Shown here in pieces: positions 1-8,688 of a stretch of 8,688 nucleotides of DNA (its first letter is position 1; every line of letters starts with the position of its first letter). The notes beneath the pieces are model-generated. The model saw nothing but the letters and a program-made list of their open reading frames with translations, did no database searches and was not told where the DNA came from. The translations under genes and the position numbers were made by a program. This DNA is from an uncultured Clostridia bacterium (lineage in GTDB: Bacteria; Bacillota; Clostridia; Christensenellales; UBA1242): positions 1 through 8,688 of the forward strand of contig USJH01000041.1 in assembly GCA_900554955.1 (NCBI GenBank), in the 5' to 3' direction.

Positions 1-1205
1 GAACCGGCCTCAATTTTAATAATTGCACCGACAGCCAAAATGTTGCCGTCATAATCAATGATTGTTGCACCATCAATTGCAATAAGCTCTTGGCGAAGTT
101 TTCTTCCAAGGTCTTGAAATTTTCGTCCGTTTATGATTTTGATAAGGTTTGCTGATTTACTGCATTTTTCTTCGGTTAAAAATTTTTCAAAAGGCTCAAA
201 TTCCTCTGAATTTTCTTCATCTGGCAAATGAAAAAATGATTGATCAATGATCTGTTGCATTTTAAAGTCATAACAATCTTTAAAAAGCATATCAGCAGCA
301 TCAATATGTTTCAAAACATTATATCGATCATTGCTGTTAACGTGAACTAAGCAACCACCATTTCTTGCAAAAGAAGTGTCAAGTGCTGAAAGATAGATTG
401 CTTTTCTGAGTTCTTCAACTTCACCATCTCTGTCTGCAAGTTTGCTTATGATTTCTTCATGGGAAAAACAAACCCAAGCACCATTTCTCTTTGCAAACAA
501 AAGTTGTTTGTCTTTAAACACCAAAATGTCGCCTTCTTCAATAAGGCACACACCAATTTTTGCACCTGTGCAAAGGTTTGCAAGTTTCAAATATTCATAT
601 GGTGCGAGCAAGTCTTCCTTAACAACTGCCGAGAAATTTTGATAACCCGCCAAATAGCCATCGGCATAAAGTTCAATTCCGGTGTTTTGACCATCAGACA
701 AAAGCGCAACAAAATCACGTTTCAAAATGTGATCAATGTGCATGTTTAAGCTTGTTCCCTTCGGAGCATTTTTTCCGTTTATAATAAAACCAAAAGTTGC
801 CTTGTTCCCCTCATAGGTTCTAAGGCTCCATTGTGTCACCGCTGTGAGCAAATGATCAAGAGTGTCACGAGCTTTTGTTGTCAAGGCTTTACAAATTGAG
901 TGTTGTGCAACTTGGCTTTCAATGCCATGCATATATTCTTTATCAAGATTGGCTTTGAATATGTGATGCATTTCATCAATAATTGACTTCACAAGCGAAA
1001 TTTCAAAAGCTTTAAAAGGTTGAACTCTTCGAATTATAAAACGATAATCATCATTACGGTCAAATTTTACAAGCAAAGAACCAGCGTTTCCCTGTGCAAC
1101 GCATGCGTCTCTTGGACCAGACTCTTCTTCCCCAACGATTTCTGAGCCTGTAAACATAGAGAGAATGTTGTCTTCCAAAAATGTTGTAAAGCGCTCTCTT
1201 TTCAT
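1..1205 (-). CDS. Diadenylate cyclase (DisA_N/DAC domain) protein with long N-terminal region, 3' end off window
   Basis: The open frame runs from ATG at 1205 to the left edge (401 full codons, no stop). The start is supported by AGGGG seven bases upstream. Residues about 265-401 resemble a diadenylate cyclase domain: a SFARNGGCLV segment (278-286), like the glycine-containing strand that opens the family fold, and the substrate-binding DGA motif at 378-380, followed by the typical DYDGNILAVGAII strand pair. In known families this domain condenses two ATP into c-di-AMP, which controls potassium, osmolyte and wall homeostasis. The second ATP motif (RHR or equivalent) would lie just beyond the edge, so activity cannot be judged. 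Residues 1-260 match nothing I recognise. They show no membrane segments, unlike CdaA, and the domain order is not that of DisA, where the cyclase is N-terminal. A signal-sensing role for this part is inference. The gene diverges from the hydrogenase gene. Confidence 0.8.
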   Translation of the reverse strand, partial: MKRERFTTFLEDNILSMFTGSEIVGEEESGPRDACVAQGNAGSLLVKFDRNDDYRFIIRRVQPFKAFEISLVKSIIDEMHHIFKANLDKEYMHGIESQVAQHSICKALTTKARDTLDHLLTAVTQWSLRTYEGNKATFGFIINGKNAPKGTSLNMHIDHILKRDFVALLSDGQNTGIELYADGYLAGYQNFSAVVKEDLLAPYEYLKLANLCTGAKIGVCLIEEGDILVFKDKQLLFAKRNGAWVCFSHEEIISKLADRDGEVEELRKAIYLSALDTSFARNGGCLVHVNSNDRYNVLKHIDAADMLFKDCYDFKMQQIIDQSFFHLPDEENSEEFEPFEKFLTEEKCSKSANLIKIINGRKFQDLGRKLRQELIAIDGATIIDYDGNILAVGAIIKIEAG

Positions 1206-2942: not shown

Positions 2943-4103
2943 ATGAACGATTATATTAAAGCCATCAAGAAAATGGCAGTTGCACTTTTTGGCGAAGTTG
3001 ATGACCATGCCTATGACAATGAAGAACTTGAAAAGATTCTTGACAACTATTTTAGAAACATGTCACACATTCCTGAAACAAGACTTACAAAAGCTGTTGA
3101 CAACTTTATTTTGAAAGGAAAGACAAAAAACTCTTGGTTCTTTTCAGATTATGCCGTTATCAAATTTAACCGAGAAGAAAAGAAAATTTTGATTGAACAA
3201 CCAAACATCACCGCCGTTTCAGAAATTGCACTTGATCCAAACGGTGTTGCAGTTGAACTTTATTCTCTTGAAAAGTTTGAAAAAGGAATTAAACTTGCAA
3301 AAGTTATAACTGGACAATTTGAAGCTTATTCATCTGAATATAACTTGACTCGTGAATATCGCTTTAAGAAAGAAACCCCTTCTTTTGAAGATTGCTATGA
3401 TAAATTTATTTATCCTTTCATTTTAGAAGAAGTTGGCGATAATTTTCTTTCAAAATCTTTTGAAGAAGCAAGAAAACAAGAAATTTATAACTTCCCAGCA
3501 CAAGATGATTTTAGCCATATAACATTCAGAGTTTTTGATGAAAATGGAAAGTCATCACTTGCAATCATTCACCCAGAATATAAAGATGTTGAAAAGAGAC
3601 TCAGAATTCCAAAAATGCAACAAGAATTATTCTTTATGAGTAACGGAAGATTTTATCATAAGACCATTGGAGAAATGCACACTAAACATGGTTTAAAACA
3701 TTTTGAAGAGACCGGAGAAAACATTTTCCGTGGAACTCTTGGTGCTTCACTTTTCATTCTTAAAACAACAAATCCAGCAGAATATTATGGCTACACAAAC
3801 AATCCAGAACTTATCAGAAAAATGGAAGAAAAAATAGCTGAAAAAGCAAGACAACTTGAAAAAGAAAAACACGAACAAATGCTCAGAGAGGCTGGAAAAC
3901 AAGAAGAAAAAACAAAAACAACTTCAAGAAGAAAAACAAAAGTTAAAGAAAGCGAAACAAGTGCACCTGTTAAACCAGAAGAAAAACCACAACCAAAGAA
4001 AAAGCAAACAGCAAAAACAATCACTGCAAAAAAGAAGGCTGCTTCTAAGAAAACAACAACACAAAAGAAAAAACCAACCGAAAATGAAAAGGGTGACGAT
4101 TAA
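2943..4103 (+). CDS. Unrecognised 386-residue protein with lysine/alanine-rich histone-H1-like tail
   Basis: I do not recognise the main domain. Residues 1-285 form a mixed alpha/beta body without signal peptide or membrane segments. Charged and aromatic stretches are common, and a distinctive GRFYHKTIGEMHTKHGLKHF segment (235-254) contains four histidines. Residues about 289-320 are a strongly charged predicted coiled coil (repeating E/K/R/Q). Residues 320-386 are a disordered tail rich in Lys, Ala, Pro and Thr, with AKKKAASKK (362-370), as in bacterial histone-H1-like DNA-binding tails; the last residues are acidic. The tail suggests binding to nucleic acid or another polyanion, which is inference. 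Translation starts after an unusual run of six G (2931-2936) six bases before the ATG. The gene is bounded by hairpins, so it is probably a single unit. Codon use matches the neighbouring hydrogenase, so it looks native. Confidence 0.85.
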   Translation: MNDYIKAIKKMAVALFGEVDDHAYDNEELEKILDNYFRNMSHIPETRLTKAVDNFILKGKTKNSWFFSDYAVIKFNREEKKILIEQPNITAVSEIALDPNGVAVELYSLEKFEKGIKLAKVITGQFEAYSSEYNLTREYRFKKETPSFEDCYDKFIYPFILEEVGDNFLSKSFEEARKQEIYNFPAQDDFSHITFRVFDENGKSSLAIIHPEYKDVEKRLRIPKMQQELFFMSNGRFYHKTIGEMHTKHGLKHFEETGENIFRGTLGASLFILKTTNPAEYYGYTNNPELIRKMEEKIAEKARQLEKEKHEQMLREAGKQEEKTKTTSRRKTKVKESETSAPVKPEEKPQPKKKQTAKTITAKKKAASKKTTTQKKKPTENEKGDD

Positions 4104-4198: not shown

Positions 4199-4996
4199 AT
4201 GTTTAACGCAAACCAATTTAAAGAAATGAGATTTAAAAAGCATTTGTCAGAAGACGACATCATCGAGCTTATTCGCCTTCAAAACAGAGCATATAAAGAC
4301 TACACTGCTTTCTGCAATACACAATGCAACGTAGATAATAAATTTTATGACTTCACTTTAAGCAAAATTTTAAAACTTTCATATGCACAATATAAAGAAA
4401 AAAGTGGTTCAGAAGAAATTGCAACAAGATGTGCAATGGCAGACCAAGAATTTTATGATTCTGCTTGCATGCTTGCTTTTGGAAGAAGAGCATATTATAG
4501 TGATGCCGATGTTACGACCGTTTTCGGATCACAAGACCGCTATGAAGACGTAATGAGATCTGCCCTTTTCAAAACTGCACTTATGATTCCAATCAAAGCT
4601 CGCATTCAAGAATTTAAAACAAGAGCAAAAACTGCAAAAAGTGGAGATTATGAAAAACTCGCTTATGACATTAATCGTCTTAGAGATATTTACACATTCA
4701 CTTCAAAACTTGCAAATGACAGACTTAGCAACATGTATGAAGAAAACTATAGTTCTATAGACAATAATGGCAAACCAGTCCACGGCGAATTTGATCTTGA
4801 TATTGTTGAATATCAAATGTATATTATCAATCAAAATCTTGCAAAGATTATAAAACTTCAAAACAAAATTGAAAAAAGACACCTTCATATCACCAAAAAC
4901 AAAAGTCTTCTTTCATCGCTCAGCAAAACAACTTTTGAAAGAGCCGAAGAAAAAGAAGATCCAAGCAAAGAAGAAAGCAACTTGGAAAATGAATAG
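4199..4996 (+). CDS. Unrecognised 265-residue, mostly helical soluble protein
   Basis: I recognise no family. The protein appears almost entirely helical, with no signal peptide or membrane segment. Residues 1-60 are amphipathic and rich in aromatic residues and Lys. Four cysteines lie at C39, C43, C78 and C90; C39 and C43 are CxxxC-spaced, but no clear metal site results. Residues about 133-180 and 200-232 look like long charged helices, possibly coiled coils. The last ~20 residues are strongly acidic (Glu/Asp/Lys/Ser). TAGGAG eight bases before the ATG and a strong upstream promoter support the start. A terminator follows 14 nt after the TAG stop, so this is a single-gene unit. Leu CTT and Ile ATT use matches the other native-looking genes. 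It could be a lineage-specific structural or adaptor protein; no function is claimed. Confidence 0.85.
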   Translation: MFNANQFKEMRFKKHLSEDDIIELIRLQNRAYKDYTAFCNTQCNVDNKFYDFTLSKILKLSYAQYKEKSGSEEIATRCAMADQEFYDSACMLAFGRRAYYSDADVTTVFGSQDRYEDVMRSALFKTALMIPIKARIQEFKTRAKTAKSGDYEKLAYDINRLRDIYTFTSKLANDRLSNMYEENYSSIDNNGKPVHGEFDLDIVEYQMYIINQNLAKIIKLQNKIEKRHLHITKNKSLLSSLSKTTFERAEEKEDPSKEESNLENE

Positions 4997-5044: not shown

Positions 5045-6769
5045 TTATTTTTCAGTTTTTCTTTTCCTTTTTGGTTTTTCTTCATGAACCGAAACCAAAA
5101 CTTCTTCTATTTTTTGTTTTTGCACAACTGAAGCATTTCCGCCGTTAATTTCATAAACCAAGCCAGCAATGTCATCAAACTCTTCAGAATGCGTGAAAAA
5201 GATTATTGTTTTTTCTTTCGCAAGTTTCTTTATCACCTTTCTAAAATGATAGATAAAATCAGGCGATGCATCTTGTGGAAGCTCATATATCATTAAAATT
5301 GATGGATTTGAAAGCAATGAACGTGCCATTCCTAAAAAGAATAAAATTTCACTTGATGTCACATCAATAACTTGACAATTGAACCCATCTGGAAGCCTTT
5401 CAATTGCATTAAGAATTCCAACTTTGTCGCACATTTTTCGAACATTTTCAAAACGTTTGTCAGCAAGGCTCAAGTTCTCTTTGATTGTTCCACTTATAAA
5501 TGGTGGGTGCGAAGAACAATAATTGATATGGTTTTTGAAAGTTTTGTCGTTATAGTCATAAAGGTTAAGGTTGTCAAGAAGAACCTTTCCACTTTTTGGT
5601 TTAATGTTTCTTCGAAGAAGGTTAAACACAAGACGTTTTCCGCTTCCACGACCGCCACGAATAATGTTTATGTCTTCCATTTTAAACGAAATGTCAATAT
5701 GGTCAAGAGAAATGTTTTCACTTGTTTTTTCTTCACATGAAACATCAATAAGCCCCAAATTATATCCATTTGTGGCAGTATTAAGTTCGCCATATTTTGC
5801 AAGTTGACTGTCGCTCATTGACAAGATTGTTTCAATTCTATCAACGTCAACACGCATGTTTTCAAGTGCACTTGTTTTGTCAAAAAGAGTGTTAAGCTTA
5901 TCGGTGCAAGTTGAAAGATATGGAACAATAATCAAATATACAGTCATTTCCATTGTTCCTTTCGAAACATAATACATCATGAGAGCTGCAACCGCATAAA
6001 CAACAACGTTCCAAAGTGCATACCATAAATTTGCTTTTTTAGAATAGGTTGTATAATATTGATCAAAAGCTTTTGCATAGTTTTTAATGTCCTGATGAAC
6101 AACATCGGAATATTTCTCTTCCCCGCCAAATTCTTTTATAAGCAATTTCCCATCGATAACTTTATTATAAGATTTAAACAAATCATCTTTCTTCTCATAA
6201 CGAAGCATCATATATTTCCCGAGTTTTTTGTTGAAAAAATAATATGCAAAGAAGTTTACAACTCCAAGTGCAAGAACAATTACACCTGCAAGCCAATTTG
6301 CAACAAACACTGTTGCAAGAGTAATGACAACTTGAAATGAATATGCAATAAAACTTGCGACTGTGTCTGGAAATTCACCAATATATGAAAGGTTGTTAAG
6401 TGCAATATTAATGATCTTTTCCTTGCTCATTTTCTTTATGCTTGAGCTTTCGCAAGACATGATTTTGTCATATACTTTGCCAGTAACTTTCTCACGAACC
6501 CAACCATAATGTTTTGCATAATATTTATATTGCAAGTGAAGAGAGGAATTTCTTATTACAATTGTTGCAAGCTCTAAAAACAAAAATAGAAATGATCCTT
6601 TCCAATCTTTTGCATACATGCAGTTGATTGTTTTTGCTGCAAAAATTGTGAAAACGGTAAGAAATAAAGAATATACAACATAATAAAAAATCTGCCAAAA
6701 CCAAATTCTTTTGTTTGGTTCTGCCAACCTATACCATCGCTTGAGAATGCTATCTTTATTCTTTTCCAC
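5045..6769 (-). CDS. ABC half-transporter (permease fused to a degenerate nucleotide-binding domain)
   Basis: The 574-residue product has the layout of an exporter half-transporter: about six membrane segments (roughly 24-46, 57-74, 135-159, 160-180, 252-268, 275-287), then an ATPase domain. That domain is degenerate. Walker A is GGRGSGKR (372-379), with Arg for the Mg-binding Ser/Thr. The Q-loop Gln is Ser420. The signature LSGGQ is replaced by TSSEI (471-475). Walker B ends in Tyr495 instead of Asp. The catalytic-position Glu496 and H-loop His527 remain, as does the SGTIKENL segment. It may be the inactive half of a heterodimer, with the active half elsewhere, or a non-transport protein; the substrate is unknown. 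The Lys/Arg-rich tail is a further oddity. I start it at GTG 6769, with AAGGA seven bases upstream. An upstream ATG at 6817 would add 16 residues but overlaps the promoter. Confidence 0.87.
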   Translation of the reverse strand: MEKNKDSILKRWYRLAEPNKRIWFWQIFYYVVYSLFLTVFTIFAAKTINCMYAKDWKGSFLFLFLELATIVIRNSSLHLQYKYYAKHYGWVREKVTGKVYDKIMSCESSSIKKMSKEKIINIALNNLSYIGEFPDTVASFIAYSFQVVITLATVFVANWLAGVIVLALGVVNFFAYYFFNKKLGKYMMLRYEKKDDLFKSYNKVIDGKLLIKEFGGEEKYSDVVHQDIKNYAKAFDQYYTTYSKKANLWYALWNVVVYAVAALMMYYVSKGTMEMTVYLIIVPYLSTCTDKLNTLFDKTSALENMRVDVDRIETILSMSDSQLAKYGELNTATNGYNLGLIDVSCEEKTSENISLDHIDISFKMEDINIIRGGRGSGKRLVFNLLRRNIKPKSGKVLLDNLNLYDYNDKTFKNHINYCSSHPPFISGTIKENLSLADKRFENVRKMCDKVGILNAIERLPDGFNCQVIDVTSSEILFFLGMARSLLSNPSILMIYELPQDASPDFIYHFRKVIKKLAKEKTIIFFTHSEEFDDIAGLVYEINGGNASVVQKQKIEEVLVSVHEEKPKRKRKTEK

Positions 6770-6788
6770 TGCTATTTCCTTTGGTTTT

Positions 6789-6817
6789 ATTATATTATAC
6801 CAAAAAAAATATGGCAA
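6789..6817 (-). promoter_or_regulatory. Promoter of the ABC gene, deciding its start
   Basis: On the minus strand TTGCCA (6817-6812) and TATAAT (6794-6789) have a 17-bp spacer; an overlapping second TATAAT lies at 6799-6794. The -10 box is about 20 bp upstream of the GTG at 6769, and AAGGA at 6781-6777 follows. Because the ATG at 6817 falls inside the -35 box, this pair argues for the GTG start. Confidence 0.7.
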
Positions 6818-6827
6818 ACAAATTTGT
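6818..6827. repeat. Small palindrome beside the ABC -35 box
   Basis: ACAAATTTGT is a perfect 10-bp palindrome abutting the -35 box of the ABC promoter. It could be an operator half, but AT-rich palindromes of this size are common. The rest of the divergent spacer (6828-6940) shows only AT-rich DNA with no gene. Confidence 0.25.
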
Positions 6828-6940
6828 CAAAAAACACATGTTTTTGTATTTTTCCGCATAAAAAATGCAAAAATAGACAAGTTTGTTAATTATTAATTGT
6901 AAAATCTCCACGAACAAGAAAACACTAAAAATTGCCACTC

Positions 6941-6968
6941 TTGACAAATTTTTTATTTGTTGTATAAT
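6941..6968 (+). promoter_or_regulatory. Consensus promoter of the 7000 gene
   Basis: A perfect TTGACA (6941-6946) and a perfect TATAAT (6963-6968) have a 16-bp spacer. The -10 box ends 31 bp before the ATG. AAGGAG (6987-6992) lies seven bases from the start codon. This is the closest match to the vegetative consensus in the window, suggesting strong constitutive expression. Confidence 0.85.
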
Positions 6969-6999
6969 ATTTATATAATAAATTTTAAGGAGCACTTTT

Positions 7000-7467
7000 A
7001 TGAGCAAAATTAATTTCCAAGACATGCTTGAGTTCTCACTTTATACATGCGCATATCGCCTTCAAGAAGTTATCACAGTGATTGAAGACAATCTTGAAGA
7101 CCAAGAGCTTGTTGCAAAACAAATTGAAGAAATGACAGGCAAACGTCCAGAAGAAACTGAAGAAGATTTAGAACTTAAACAAGCAACAATTGCAAGTCTT
7201 AACCACAACTATGAAGCTCTTGACGAAATCAAAACTTTGATTGAAAAAAGATATGGCAAAGGCGAATTTAAAAATTGGCTTGAATATAACGATAAGTTTG
7301 TTGCCTCTCTTTCATGGGACAACTATTCAGAAGTTGGTGATGCAAACGAACAATATAAAAACAAAGGTTTCTTGCTTAATTCTCCATCATATGAAGAACT
7401 TAAACACGTTTTAAAAGCAAACGGCTATCATCGTTACAGCCCAGAAAAAGAACCAGCAAACGACTAA
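7000..7467 (+). CDS. Unrecognised small acidic helical protein, 155 residues
   Basis: I recognise no family. The protein is soluble and acidic. Residues 7-45 form a predicted helix, followed by a Glu/Asp-rich stretch (50-60) and a second long helix (about 56-87). The C-terminal third (88-145) has aromatic residues (W93, Y96, W106, Y109, Y119) and ends in a short polar tail. C17 is the only cysteine. A consensus promoter and strong AAGGAG site suggest high expression, and a perfect terminator follows eight bases after the stop codon, so it is transcribed alone. It diverges from the ABC gene, but nothing in the sequence ties the two functionally. Codon use is native-like. It could be a housekeeping-level lineage-specific protein; function unknown. 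Confidence 0.85.
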   Translation: MSKINFQDMLEFSLYTCAYRLQEVITVIEDNLEDQELVAKQIEEMTGKRPEETEEDLELKQATIASLNHNYEALDEIKTLIEKRYGKGEFKNWLEYNDKFVASLSWDNYSEVGDANEQYKNKGFLLNSPSYEELKHVLKANGYHRYSPEKEPAND

Positions 7468-7474
7468 AAGACAC

Positions 7475-7508
7475 AAAAAAAGAACACATGAAAATGTGTT
7501 CTTTTTTT
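7475..7508. terminator. Strong bidirectional terminator with GAAA loop
   Basis: AAAAAAAGAACACAT (7475-7489) and its exact complement (7494-7508) form a 15-bp perfect stem closed by a GAAA loop. The stem ends are A-runs and T-runs on both strands. It serves the 7000 gene from the left and the NADAR gene (stop at 7518) from the right. Confidence 0.92.
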
Positions 7509-7517
7509 ATCTCTTTT

Positions 7518-8012
7518 TTACTGATTTTGTTGTTTTAATTCTTCACGAAGCTTCATCCAAAGTTTTCCAAGTTCGTTTCTTCCGTCACGATTTTTTCCAA
7601 TGCCCCAAAAACTGTCTTTAGGAGAATCTTCACAAATTCTTAAATCTCCAGTTAAAAGCAATTTCTTTTTCACATATGGGTTTTGTTCAAGTTTAAGACG
7701 AAGCAATTTCTCCATAACCTGAAGTTTAATGTCGTCCCAATCTTTTCTTTGCTTGTCTTTGTTTGCATATGCAATTTTTTGTGCTTCATGGGCAGAATAA
7801 CACTCTGTAATTTGCTTTGCAATTTCGGGTGCGGTTTCCAAAAACTTGATTGATTGATAAGCATGTTCAACCGTGCAATAAAGCACTCCGTCAACCAAAA
7901 CTCTGAACGACGAAAAATTGTCAAAAACAAAAAATTCTCTTGGATAGAACCCAATAAACTCGTCAAACTTTTCTGCAAGCCATGGGTCACGATATTGTTC
8001 AATTTGTATCAT
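7518..8012 (-). CDS. NADAR-family N-glycosidase (YbiA-like)
   Basis: The 164-residue product is full length for the NADAR/DUF1768 fold and keeps its signature positions: FDNFSSF (30-36), VEHAYQSIKF (48-57, with E49, H50, Q53 and K56), DW...M (91-100), SFWGIGKNRDGRNELG (134-149) and the closing LWMKLRE. Family members hydrolyse N-glycosidic bonds. E. coli YbiA acts on riboflavin-pathway ribosylamino intermediates, and other NADAR proteins remove ADP-ribose from guanine in DNA as antitoxins to DarT-type toxins. The sequence alone does not say which substrate applies here. It is the second gene of an operon: AAAGGAG lies inside the last codons of the upstream phosphoribosyltransferase, whose TAA is 3 nt before this ATG, so translation is probably coupled. 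Codon use (CTT Leu, ATT Ile) is native-like, unlike its partner. Confidence 0.92.
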   Translation of the reverse strand: MIQIEQYRDPWLAEKFDEFIGFYPREFFVFDNFSSFRVLVDGVLYCTVEHAYQSIKFLETAPEIAKQITECYSAHEAQKIAYANKDKQRKDWDDIKLQVMEKLLRLKLEQNPYVKKKLLLTGDLRICEDSPKDSFWGIGKNRDGRNELGKLWMKLREELKQQNQ

Positions 8013-8015
8013 AAT

Positions 8016-8688
8016 TTATCTCCTTTCATACATATTTCCTATTTCTGCGACTTCACTCTTGTCCGCATATATTCCATTTTTGTAAAGATATTCTAATAAT
8101 CTTCTTCTATCCTTATTAAATATTCCAAGTTCATCTAAATACAAGCCAGAATTATTCTCTTTAATTTTCGTATAAGGACTAGAGAACACTAACCCTTGTA
8201 TATAATTAAAAAACTTTTCCGTATCTATAGCCGAATCTTCAGCCATCATTTGATTCACTCTATTGATTGATGGATATCTTACAATTGCAATATTATCCAC
8301 AGCTATATTATTTGAAAATAATAAGTTTATCATTGCTTGTAATGTTTTTCCAGTCAATACATTATCATCTCCGAGAACATTAAATGTTGAATTTAGATTA
8401 TCAAAGTCTTCAGCCTTTATTGGTTTAGATATATACTCTTCTGGATTTCTATCTTTATATTTACTTTGCAAAATAATTGCAGACATCATAATTTCATTAT
8501 TTAATATTTCATTAGCGATAAATGGTAACTCTAAGCCCCCATAGGTTGCGCCTATAAAGTTAACATTTCTTCCTAATATATCTGGTTTTGTTTCTTTTAT
8601 TTTTTGTATTGCGTAATAAATGGCAATATAATTTTCAATAAAATTGTCTATTTCTCGATAAGATCTAAATGATTTATCTAAATTTGTA
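8016..8688 (-). CDS. Phosphoribosyltransferase-fold protein, 5' end off window
   Basis: The frame is open from the right edge to the TAA at 8016 (224 codons including the stop), so the first ATG inside it (8489) is not a convincing start. Visible residues include NFIGATYGGLELP (43-55), resembling the first PRTase strand and pyrophosphate loop, and NVLGDDNVLTGKTLQ (103-117), which fits the type I PRPP-binding motif (two acidic residues, then TGKT). A following strand, AIVRYPSINR, continues the fold. Such enzymes use PRPP to attach or exchange phosphoribosyl groups on bases or related molecules; the substrate is unknown. About 80 C-terminal residues (150-223) are unassigned. Ile ATA (15 of 26) and Leu TTA (12 of 19) contrast with all other genes here, suggesting acquisition by transfer. 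It is translationally coupled to the NADAR gene. Confidence 0.75.
   Translation of the reverse strand, partial: TNLDKSFRSYREIDNFIENYIAIYYAIQKIKETKPDILGRNVNFIGATYGGLELPFIANEILNNEIMMSAIILQSKYKDRNPEEYISKPIKAEDFDNLNSTFNVLGDDNVLTGKTLQAMINLLFSNNIAVDNIAIVRYPSINRVNQMMAEDSAIDTEKFFNYIQGLVFSSPYTKIKENNSGLYLDELGIFNKDRRRLLEYLYKNGIYADKSEVAEIGNMYERR
8019..8027 (-). promoter_or_regulatory. Strong ribosome binding site of the NADAR gene inside the upstream coding region
   Basis: On the minus strand GAAAGGAGA spans the last Glu-Arg-Arg codons region of the phosphoribosyltransferase gene and is followed by its TAA and, after 3 nt, the NADAR ATG at 8012. This near-perfect Shine-Dalgarno fixes the NADAR start and implies coupled translation of the two proteins. 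Confidence 0.85.

What the first reader, a model, noticed from the sequence alone, without database searches (positions are those of the whole stretch)
7518..8688. Coupled phosphoribosyltransferase-NADAR operon, a possible base modification and reversal pair
Seen: a PRPP-motif protein (DDNVLTGKT) ends 3 nt before a NADAR protein with all family signature residues, with the NADAR ribosome site inside the first gene. Known: NADAR enzymes break N-glycosidic bonds, and some are antitoxins that strip ADP-ribose from guanine; PRTases form N-ribosyl bonds from PRPP. Inference: the first enzyme could install a phosphoribosyl group on a nucleobase or metabolite that the second removes, as a toxin-antitoxin, phage-defence or metabolite-repair module. 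I know of DarT-NADAR pairs but no established PRTase-NADAR pair.
Basis: partly seen in the sequence, partly recalled or inferred. Interest (0 to 1): 0.75.

Follow-up and report, generated by a model that had tools for sequence, protein, structure and literature searches.

The report
Two-enzyme pair resembling phage defence
In this bacterial DNA fragment a predicted phosphoribosyltransferase gene ends three bases before a NADAR gene, the same two-gene layout as the system catalogued as anti-phage under the name DS32 but with a first protein from a different sequence family, so it is likely a separately evolved version of that kind of module.

Summary
On the minus strand a PRTase fragment (8016-8687, cut by the window end) stops 3 nt before a full NADAR (7518-8012), whose Shine-Dalgarno lies in the PRTase's last codons. 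The claim that no PRTase-NADAR pair is established is wrong: NCBIfam holds a two-gene anti-phage system, DS32 (PRTase-like + NADAR). I found it in Klebsiella, Methylobacterium, Vibrio and both E. coli records opened (of 62 with a match; same alleles, in a lambdoid prophage), same order, 1-5 nt apart. The window pair has that layout but fails both DS32 models, and its PRTase shows no sequence homology to DS32_1. It belongs to an unnamed type I PRTase family, about 480 aa alone or about 780-805 aa with an N-terminal HAD. One other genome, G623, pairs this family with a 67%-identical NADAR, in swapped order. Pairing is facultative: 5 of 6 genomes of one order with this NADAR subfamily lack the PRTase; G001, G703 and G740 have the PRTase without NADAR. 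The window PRTase has foreign codon usage; NADAR does not. Best reading (0.45): a DS32-like module in which PRTase makes an N-phosphoribosyl product and NADAR hydrolyses it. Untested idea: NADAR replaces HAD (5 of 5 loci agree).

The parts
8016..8687 (-). C-terminal 223 aa of a type I phosphoribosyltransferase of an unnamed family (gene runs off the window)
   Evidence: Open ORF; 41 relatives at E 0.01; closest complete-looking relatives are HAD-less 480-481 aa proteins P0138/P0133/P0130; fold of P0138 = type I PRTase
8343..8369 (-). PRPP-binding motif DDNVLTGKT
   Evidence: Sequence; the DD pair is kept in 107 of 108 aligned rows of 740 aa or more (one protein is in twice)
8020..8024 (-). Shine-Dalgarno AGGAG for NADAR, inside the last two PRTase codons
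   Evidence: Junction sequence printed; translational coupling is inferred
7518..8012 (-). NADAR protein, 164 aa, YbiA-type (Glu in the last strand)
   Evidence: Pfam 102.6 bits, TIGR02464 98.7 bits, DS32_2 91.4 bits against a cut-off of 240; PADLOC candidate family PDC-M42C 34.5 bits; active-site residues E49, K56, E128
7473..7510 (-). Intrinsic terminator, usable on both strands, closing the operon after NADAR
   Evidence: Pattern scan of 6800-8688: 3 found, mean 0.5 in shuffles

Best explanation
The window carries the end of a two-gene operon, a predicted phosphoribosyltransferase followed after 3 nt by a NADAR enzyme, that likely works as a conflict (anti-phage or toxin-antidote) module of the DS-32 kind. 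Inferred mechanism: the PRTase uses PRPP to put a 5-phosphoribosyl group on a nucleobase, free or in nucleic acid, giving a harmful or signalling product. NADAR would hydrolyse the new N-glycosidic bond, so the cell stays safe until infection upsets the balance. Shown: gene order, 3-nt gap, embedded ribosome site, intact PRPP motif and NADAR active-site residues, terminator, recurrence of the pair in genome G623, and the same layout in DS-32 loci. Inferred: catalysis by either enzyme, a shared substrate, toxicity, and an anti-phage role. In origin the PRTase is not DS32_1 by any sequence test run. It comes from a family otherwise seen with a HAD phosphatase domain, or in biosynthetic clusters, and its codon usage suggests that it reached this genome from elsewhere.
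For: Gene order and 3-nt coupling. The pair recurs in G623: NADAR 67% identical, HAD-PRTase 48% identical over the shared part, same strand, 47 nt, order swapped; it is the only NADAR match in that genome. DS-32 loci have PRTase then NADAR with 1, 5, 4, 2 and 2 nt between them in Klebsiella, Methylobacterium, Vibrio and two E. coli records (the two E. coli share the same protein accessions, so four distinct pairs); the window has 3. Both members of the four distinct pairs pass the NCBIfam DS32 models. DefensePredictor reports 42 validated systems and names NADAR and PRTase among their domains (passages and sections read). NADAR also hits a PADLOC candidate defence family, PDC-M42C, E 5e-9. PRTases are proposed effectors in other defence systems (one passage). 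Foreign codon usage of the PRTase, about 5.9 sd below expectation, against 1.1 sd for NADAR, and patchy presence (3 of 287 genomes at 1e-20, one of them a fragment) fit a mobile accessory gene.
Against: No detectable sequence homology between this PRTase family and DS32_1: hhalign probability 0.3%, aligning only the stretch at the DD motif, and no PF24390 match. NADAR scores 91 bits on DS32_2, cut-off 240. The NADAR subfamily is mostly without the PRTase (5 of 6 genomes), and in 4 of 6 it lies within 3 kb of a Ham1 or Nudix gene (G408, G689, G397, G492), which suggests nucleotide sanitation. The PRTase exists without any NADAR in G001, G703 and G740, which is odd for a toxin with an obligatory antidote. 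Two distant relatives sit in biosynthetic-looking clusters. NADAR looks native and the PRTase foreign, so they may not have been together for long in this genome. No Pfam or NCBIfam defence family reaches its cut-off in the six other main ORFs of the window (PADLOC was not run on them).
Confidence: 0.45

Rival explanations
1. Metabolic pair: the PRTase makes a modified nucleotide (with HAD as 5'-phosphatase in most long relatives), and NADAR is a damage-control or overflow N-glycosidase that removes excess product, as proposed for riboflavin intermediates. No conflict role.
For: N-terminal HAD in the long relatives: HAD-IIB 33.0 bits in L001 (below the 41.8 cut-off), Hydrolase_3 32.5 bits in P0077 (cut-off 20.9) and IMP 5'-nucleotidase ISN1 30.4 bits in G623's copy (cut-off 25). 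HAD-less relatives beside a separate HAD, an asparagine-synthase amidotransferase and an acyl-AMP ligase in G740; G703 has a HAD-like 192-aa ORF and a PF00155 aminotransferase. NADARs of this subfamily follow Ham1 (G408) or precede Nudix (G397). NADAR passes TIGR02464, riboflavin intermediates N-glycosidase. PRTase occurs without NADAR.
Against: The same two-gene layout is catalogued as anti-phage elsewhere. The PRTase is rare and foreign in composition, unlike housekeeping metabolism. The HAD nucleophile Asp is replaced in 19 of 108 aligned rows (and not covered in 2 more), so nucleotide dephosphorylation is not a constant part.
Confidence: 0.3
2. Chance neighbours: a horizontally acquired PRTase landed upstream of a resident NADAR and merely shares its transcript.
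For: PRTase codon usage and GC (27%) differ from the host genes; NADAR (35%) does not. Most genomes found carry only one of the two. Gene order differs in G623.
Against: Of the two genomes searched that hold a full-length HAD-PRTase (G001, G623), one has its only NADAR next to it. Adjacency on the same strand by chance in about 1400 genes is roughly 0.0007 (arithmetic; gene number assumed, ignores hot spots). The NADAR ribosome site lies inside the PRTase gene, and relatives P0003, P0010 and P0133 share the MYER(R/S) C-terminus that can encode it (their DNA was not seen), which hints that the tight junction predates this genome.
Confidence: 0.2

Closest known systems
DS-32 / NCBIfam NF053875 (DS32_1, phosphoribosyltransferase-like) + NF053876 (DS32_2, NADAR), anti-phage
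   Same: Two genes, same strand, PRTase-type protein first, NADAR second, 1-5 nt apart; a DD..[FL][ST]G motif in the first gene
   Different: First protein belongs to PRTase-CE (PF24390) with no detectable sequence link to the window's family; NADAR only 28-39% identical and the window's is below the DS32_2 cut-off; all DS-32 loci opened here are from Pseudomonadota
DarT1-NADAR (DarTG1) and YarT-YbiA toxin-antitoxin pairs
   Same: NADAR/YbiA enzyme as partner of an enzyme that makes an N-glycosidic modification
   Different: The partner here is a PRPP-type PRTase fold, not an ADP-ribosyltransferase; NADAR has the YbiA-type glutamate, not the DarT1-linked aspartate
COG3236/RibX-type riboflavin-intermediate N-glycosidase (TIGR02464, YbiA)
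   Same: NADAR passes the TIGR02464 cut-off; YbiA-type catalytic glutamate
   Different: No riboflavin gene among the window's main ORFs; 1 of 4 DS32_2 NADARs also passes this cut-off (81 bits) and the other 3 fall just below (71, 72.7, 66.5), so the model does not tell the functions apart
Unnamed HAD + PRTase family (L001, L032 and more than 100 relatives of 740 aa or more)
   Same: The window PRTase belongs to it by sequence (99% to P0001; 58% to L001; 48% to L032)
   Different: Nearest relatives lack the HAD domain; a NADAR neighbour was seen only in the window and G623
E. coli dinG-ybiB-ybiA operon and phage NadV-NADAR neighbourhoods
   Same: A phosphoribosyltransferase-like protein and a NADAR in one neighbourhood (passages in PMC11125620 and PMC9503650)
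   Different: TrpD2-type and NadV-type PRTases are other folds or classes (recalled); no two-gene coupling of the DS-32 kind is described in the passages

Membership tests
NADAR superfamily, YbiA family | Pfam PF08719 above the curated cut-off | tested here: met
   102.6 bits against 35.1
NADAR superfamily, YbiA family | E and K of the ADP-ribose site and glutamate (not Asp/His) in the last strand | tested here: met
   E49, K56, E128 by alignment; roles read in passages of PMC11543638 and PMC11125620
Type I PRTase | PRPP motif with an acidic pair | tested here: met
   DDNVLTGKT in the window; DD in 107 of 108 rows (one protein in twice)
Type I PRTase | PRTase fold | tested here: met
DS-32 | DS32_1 (NF053875) at 250 bits or more | tested here: not met
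   No match for the window piece at E 1 or for P0138/P0133 at E 0.01
DS-32 | DS32_2 (NF053876) at 240 bits or more | tested here: not met
   91.4 bits
DS-32 | PRTase-type gene directly followed by NADAR on one strand | tested here: met
   3 nt; DS-32 loci 1-5 nt
DS-32 | Protects against phage | not testable with these tools
   Needs a plaque assay
PRTase-CE (PF24390) | Match above 27 bits | tested here: not met
   Not listed for the window piece at E 1 or for P0138, P0133, P0130, L032 at E 10
DarTG1 | DarT ADP-ribosyltransferase partner and catalytic Asp | tested here: not met
   Partner is a PRTase; residue is Glu
Riboflavin N-glycosidase (TIGR02464) | Score above 73.7 bits | tested here: met
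   98.7 bits; not discriminating, as K. pneumoniae DS32_2 NADAR passes too with 81
Riboflavin N-glycosidase (TIGR02464) | Activity on riboflavin intermediates | not testable with these tools
   Needs an enzyme assay

The most novel reading that the evidence does not exclude
A second, independently assembled class of PRTase-NADAR immunity: NADAR has taken the place of an ancestral HAD phosphatase as the enzyme that disposes of the PRTase's product. Where an intact HAD motif is fused or adjacent (L001, L036, L037) the genome has no NADAR; where the HAD is dead (L032, nucleophile Asp to Gly) or, by its nearest relatives, absent (window), NADAR sits next door: 5 of 5 loci. If so, two unrelated PRTase families converged on NADAR, which would make 'install an N-phosphoribosyl group, remove it with NADAR' a general defence chemistry.
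Probability: 0.2. Interest if true: 0.78.

Novelty: new variant of a known kind. Interest (0 to 1): 0.52.

Why it matters
NADAR enzymes are known to undo ADP-ribosylation of guanine, but I saw no account of what a PRTase-NADAR pair does, even for the DS32 system named anti-phage in NCBIfam. A second PRTase family that reached the same two-gene layout would say that the partnership, and not one PRTase lineage, is what is selected. It would point to phosphoribosylation of a base, which I did not see described in phage defence in the passages read, as the shared chemistry. The G623 and window pairs offer two natural variants (NADAR without and with the phosphate-binding lysine) for a direct test of substrate.

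Tried and rejected
Purine or pyrimidine salvage identity: no curated Pfam or NCBIfam PRTase family reaches its cut-off for the window piece (UPRTase 12 bits, cut-off 27). Among relatives PF00156 reaches its cut-off only in the distant L036 (29.1 against 26.3) of those scanned. The fold is generic type I and does not name a substrate.

NADAR-HAD link through the phosphate lysine: I first thought that K56 loss in the G623 NADAR matched an active HAD in its partner. The G623 HAD has lost its nucleophile, so that version fails. K56 is Gly in 16 of 121 aligned NADARs (the 120 listed, closest of 1085, plus the window), and is lost in NADARs without a PRTase as well.

HAD/NADAR alternation (novel case): 5 loci only, 2 of them distant (22-26% identity); Fisher's exact p for 2-of-2 against 0-of-3 is 0.1 by hand. 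The absent HAD of the window is inferred from P0138, P0133 and P0130, not seen.

Conserved adjacency in other collections: no PRTase relative in plasmids, phages or viral contigs. Three viral contigs hold a 43-44% identical NADAR; no ORF with a PRPP-like motif lies near it in any of the 3. Plasmid records with a NADAR match: 60; I opened 3 of these hits plus the neighbourhoods of two DS32_1 hits. Class search: 30 of 391 genomes at E 0.001, only G001 over the whole model, the rest HAD or PRTase stretches. Phylum: 1 of 299. Genus of G623: 1 of 14. NADAR in the class: 0 of 196 at 1e-30, with no positive control. So the survey rests on few loci.

Middle helical domain: model pLDDT 86.5, but no PDB match below E 0.28; rank 5 is a HEPN toxin at E 0.54, not significant.

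DS-32 in E. coli by DNA match to the Klebsiella locus: none with megablast; 62 of 5426 genomes with blastn, covering 22% of the query, in the NADAR part, in the rows shown. I opened 2 of the 62, with identical protein accessions. DS32_1 has no match in phages and 3 in plasmid records. That NCBIfam's DS32 is the paper's DS-32 is inferred from the matching scheme (DS2_3, and DS-2 with three genes).

Full report
What is there. On the minus strand the window ends with a 223-aa open frame (8016-8687, cut by the window end) followed after 3 nt by a 164-aa frame (7518-8012). The junction reads ...GAAAGGAGATAAATTATG, so the Shine-Dalgarno of the second gene is made of the last codons of the first. A 17-pair hairpin with a T run closes the operon at 7473-7510. 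The second gene is a NADAR: Pfam 102.6 bits against 35.1, TIGR02464 98.7 against 73.7, DS32_2 91.4 against 240, and PADLOC's candidate defence family PDC-M42C 34.5 bits. It has E49 and K56, spaced like E88 and K95 of E. coli C7 NADAR, and the YbiA-type glutamate E128 in the last strand (roles from passages of PMC11543638, and PMC11125620).

Is the pairing conserved? In the order of G001, 3 of 287 genomes have the PRTase family at 1e-20: two full-length and one fragment. In the family of G623, 4 of 292 at 1e-12: G623, the same fragment, and two distant HAD-less relatives. In G623 a 164-aa NADAR, 67% identical to the window's, lies 47 nt upstream of a HAD-PRTase on the same strand and is the only NADAR match in that genome. 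So the two families are paired twice, in opposite gene order. Against this, NADAR at 64% identity or more occurs in 6 of 385 genomes of the order (19 of 385 with any match at 1e-10), and of these 6 only G623 has the PRTase (1 of 7 genomes searched, the seventh being G538 with a 44%-identical NADAR). G001, G703 and G740 have the PRTase but no NADAR, and neither does G410, which holds the fragment (1 of 5 with NADAR). NADARs without the PRTase sit next to Ham1 (G408) or a Nudix gene (G397), with Ham1 pieces about 3 kb away in G689 and a Nudix gene about 2 kb away in G492; I saw none beside G472 or G623 by eye. The two distant HAD-less PRTases sit in small clusters. In G740 the neighbours are a separate HAD, a short-chain dehydrogenase, an asparagine-synthase-type amidotransferase, an AMP-ligase and a radical SAM protein. 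In G703 I gave Pfam the PRTase (no hit) and an aminotransferase (PF00155); the 192-aa HAD-like ORF and the other neighbours were read by sequence only.

Composition. In the window the PRTase piece has 27.4% GC and codon usage 5.9 sd below what host codon usage would give this protein; NADAR has 35.4% and is 1.1 sd below; the six other genes range from -2.9 to +1.9 (the two sd distances for the pair are my division of the printed means and sds). The PRTase looks imported and NADAR resident.

The decisive comparison. NADAR's weak match to DS32_2_antiphage led me to NF053875, DS32_1, whose description is 'phosphoribosyltransferase-like anti-phage protein'. I found whole DS-32 pairs in Klebsiella pneumoniae, Methylobacterium aquaticum and Vibrio algicola and in both E. 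coli records that I opened of 62 with a match; these two carry the same protein accessions, between lambda-type replication and nin genes of a prophage. In all five records the PRTase is first and NADAR starts 1-5 nt later. Both proteins of the four distinct pairs pass the NCBIfam cut-offs. The two DS32_1 proteins that I gave to Pfam (Klebsiella, E. coli) belong to PRTase-CE, PF24390. DefensePredictor validated 42 systems in E. coli (abstract) and mentions NADAR and PRTase domains among them.

Same family or same plan? Profile comparison of the window's PRTase family with four DS32_1 proteins finds nothing beyond a 31-column stretch at the DD...TG motif (hhalign probability 0.3%). PF24390 does not match. 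NADAR fails the DS32_2 cut-off. By membership the window pair is not DS-32; by plan it is the same. Remote common descent of the two PRTases cannot be excluded, because DS32_1 was not folded.

Mechanism. From the families: PRTases move a 5-phosphoribosyl group from PRPP to a nitrogen; NADARs hydrolyse N-glycosidic bonds of ribosyl groups on bases (guanine-ADP-ribose shown for several, PMC11125620 and PMC11833690 passages; riboflavin intermediates cited in PMC11125620 and PMC11543638). The simplest shared chemistry is that NADAR undoes what the PRTase makes. In a conflict module the PRTase would be the effector and NADAR the safeguard; in a metabolic pair NADAR would be overflow control. I put 0.45 on the first, 0.30 on the second and 0.20 on chance. 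The layout shared with DS-32 and the foreign PRTase speak for the first; the many unpaired copies speak against it.

A pattern worth testing. Where an intact HAD motif is fused or next door (L001, L036, L037), the genome has no NADAR. Where the HAD nucleophile is lost (L032) or the HAD is absent in the nearest relatives (window), NADAR is adjacent: 5 of 5 loci. Five loci prove nothing, and the motifs of L036 and L037 were read by eye (a Pfam HAD match was run for L036 only), but it predicts that HAD and NADAR are alternative ways to handle the same product.

What I did not find. No paper in the listings and passages seen that describes this PRTase family or its pairing with NADAR (searches; the library lacks most subscription journals, and I read passages of a few papers only). 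Frelin et al. 2015 is not held and is cited through PMC11543638.

Noticed in passing
L071:3772-6927, L070:2233-5402, L072:870-4016, L046:268-2852: Another NADAR subfamily (33-37% identical) lies in a conserved operon: thymidylate-kinase-like gene, a protein of about 551 aa with no Pfam match (L071 copy scanned), NADAR, GreA-like gene. L046 shows only the last three. Partner and function unknown.
   Followed up: partly
L036:1335-8386 and L037:693-8951: Distant HAD-less relatives of the PRTase (468 aa) sit in small biosynthetic-looking clusters: HAD, amidotransferase, AMP-ligase, dehydrogenase and radical SAM genes in L036 (Pfam); similar genes by eye plus an aminotransferase in L037. A possible nucleoside-like natural product.
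   Followed up: partly
L001:448-4785: The HAD-PRTase of this Clostridia MAG is followed by a 617-aa protein with PfkB kinase and weak SIS matches.
   Followed up: no
L032:3945-4439, L045:7595-8086, L065-L068: A branch of this NADAR subfamily has lost the phosphate-binding lysine (K56 to G or S) and the histidine at position 50 (to E) but keeps E49 and E128, so its substrate may lack that phosphate.
   Followed up: partly
L039:7234-8618: A truncated HAD piece of the HAD-PRTase family is followed by a second HAD-like fragment (by eye) and a Ham1-family gene: a decayed copy.
   Followed up: no
L079:2968-5832: A conjugative Enterococcus faecium plasmid carries a 954-aa protein annotated NADAR, beside a MobP2 relaxase and a toprim gene: a NADAR domain in a much larger protein.
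   Followed up: no
6941-6968, + strand: A perfect TTGACA-16-TATAAT promoter precedes an unknown 155-aa gene (7000-7467) that shares the terminator with NADAR.
   Followed up: no
3-1205 (-), 2943-4103 (+), 4199-4996 (+): Three genes without any Pfam family over its cut-off, beside an [FeFe] hydrogenase (1442-2716) and an ABC exporter (5045-6817).
   Followed up: no
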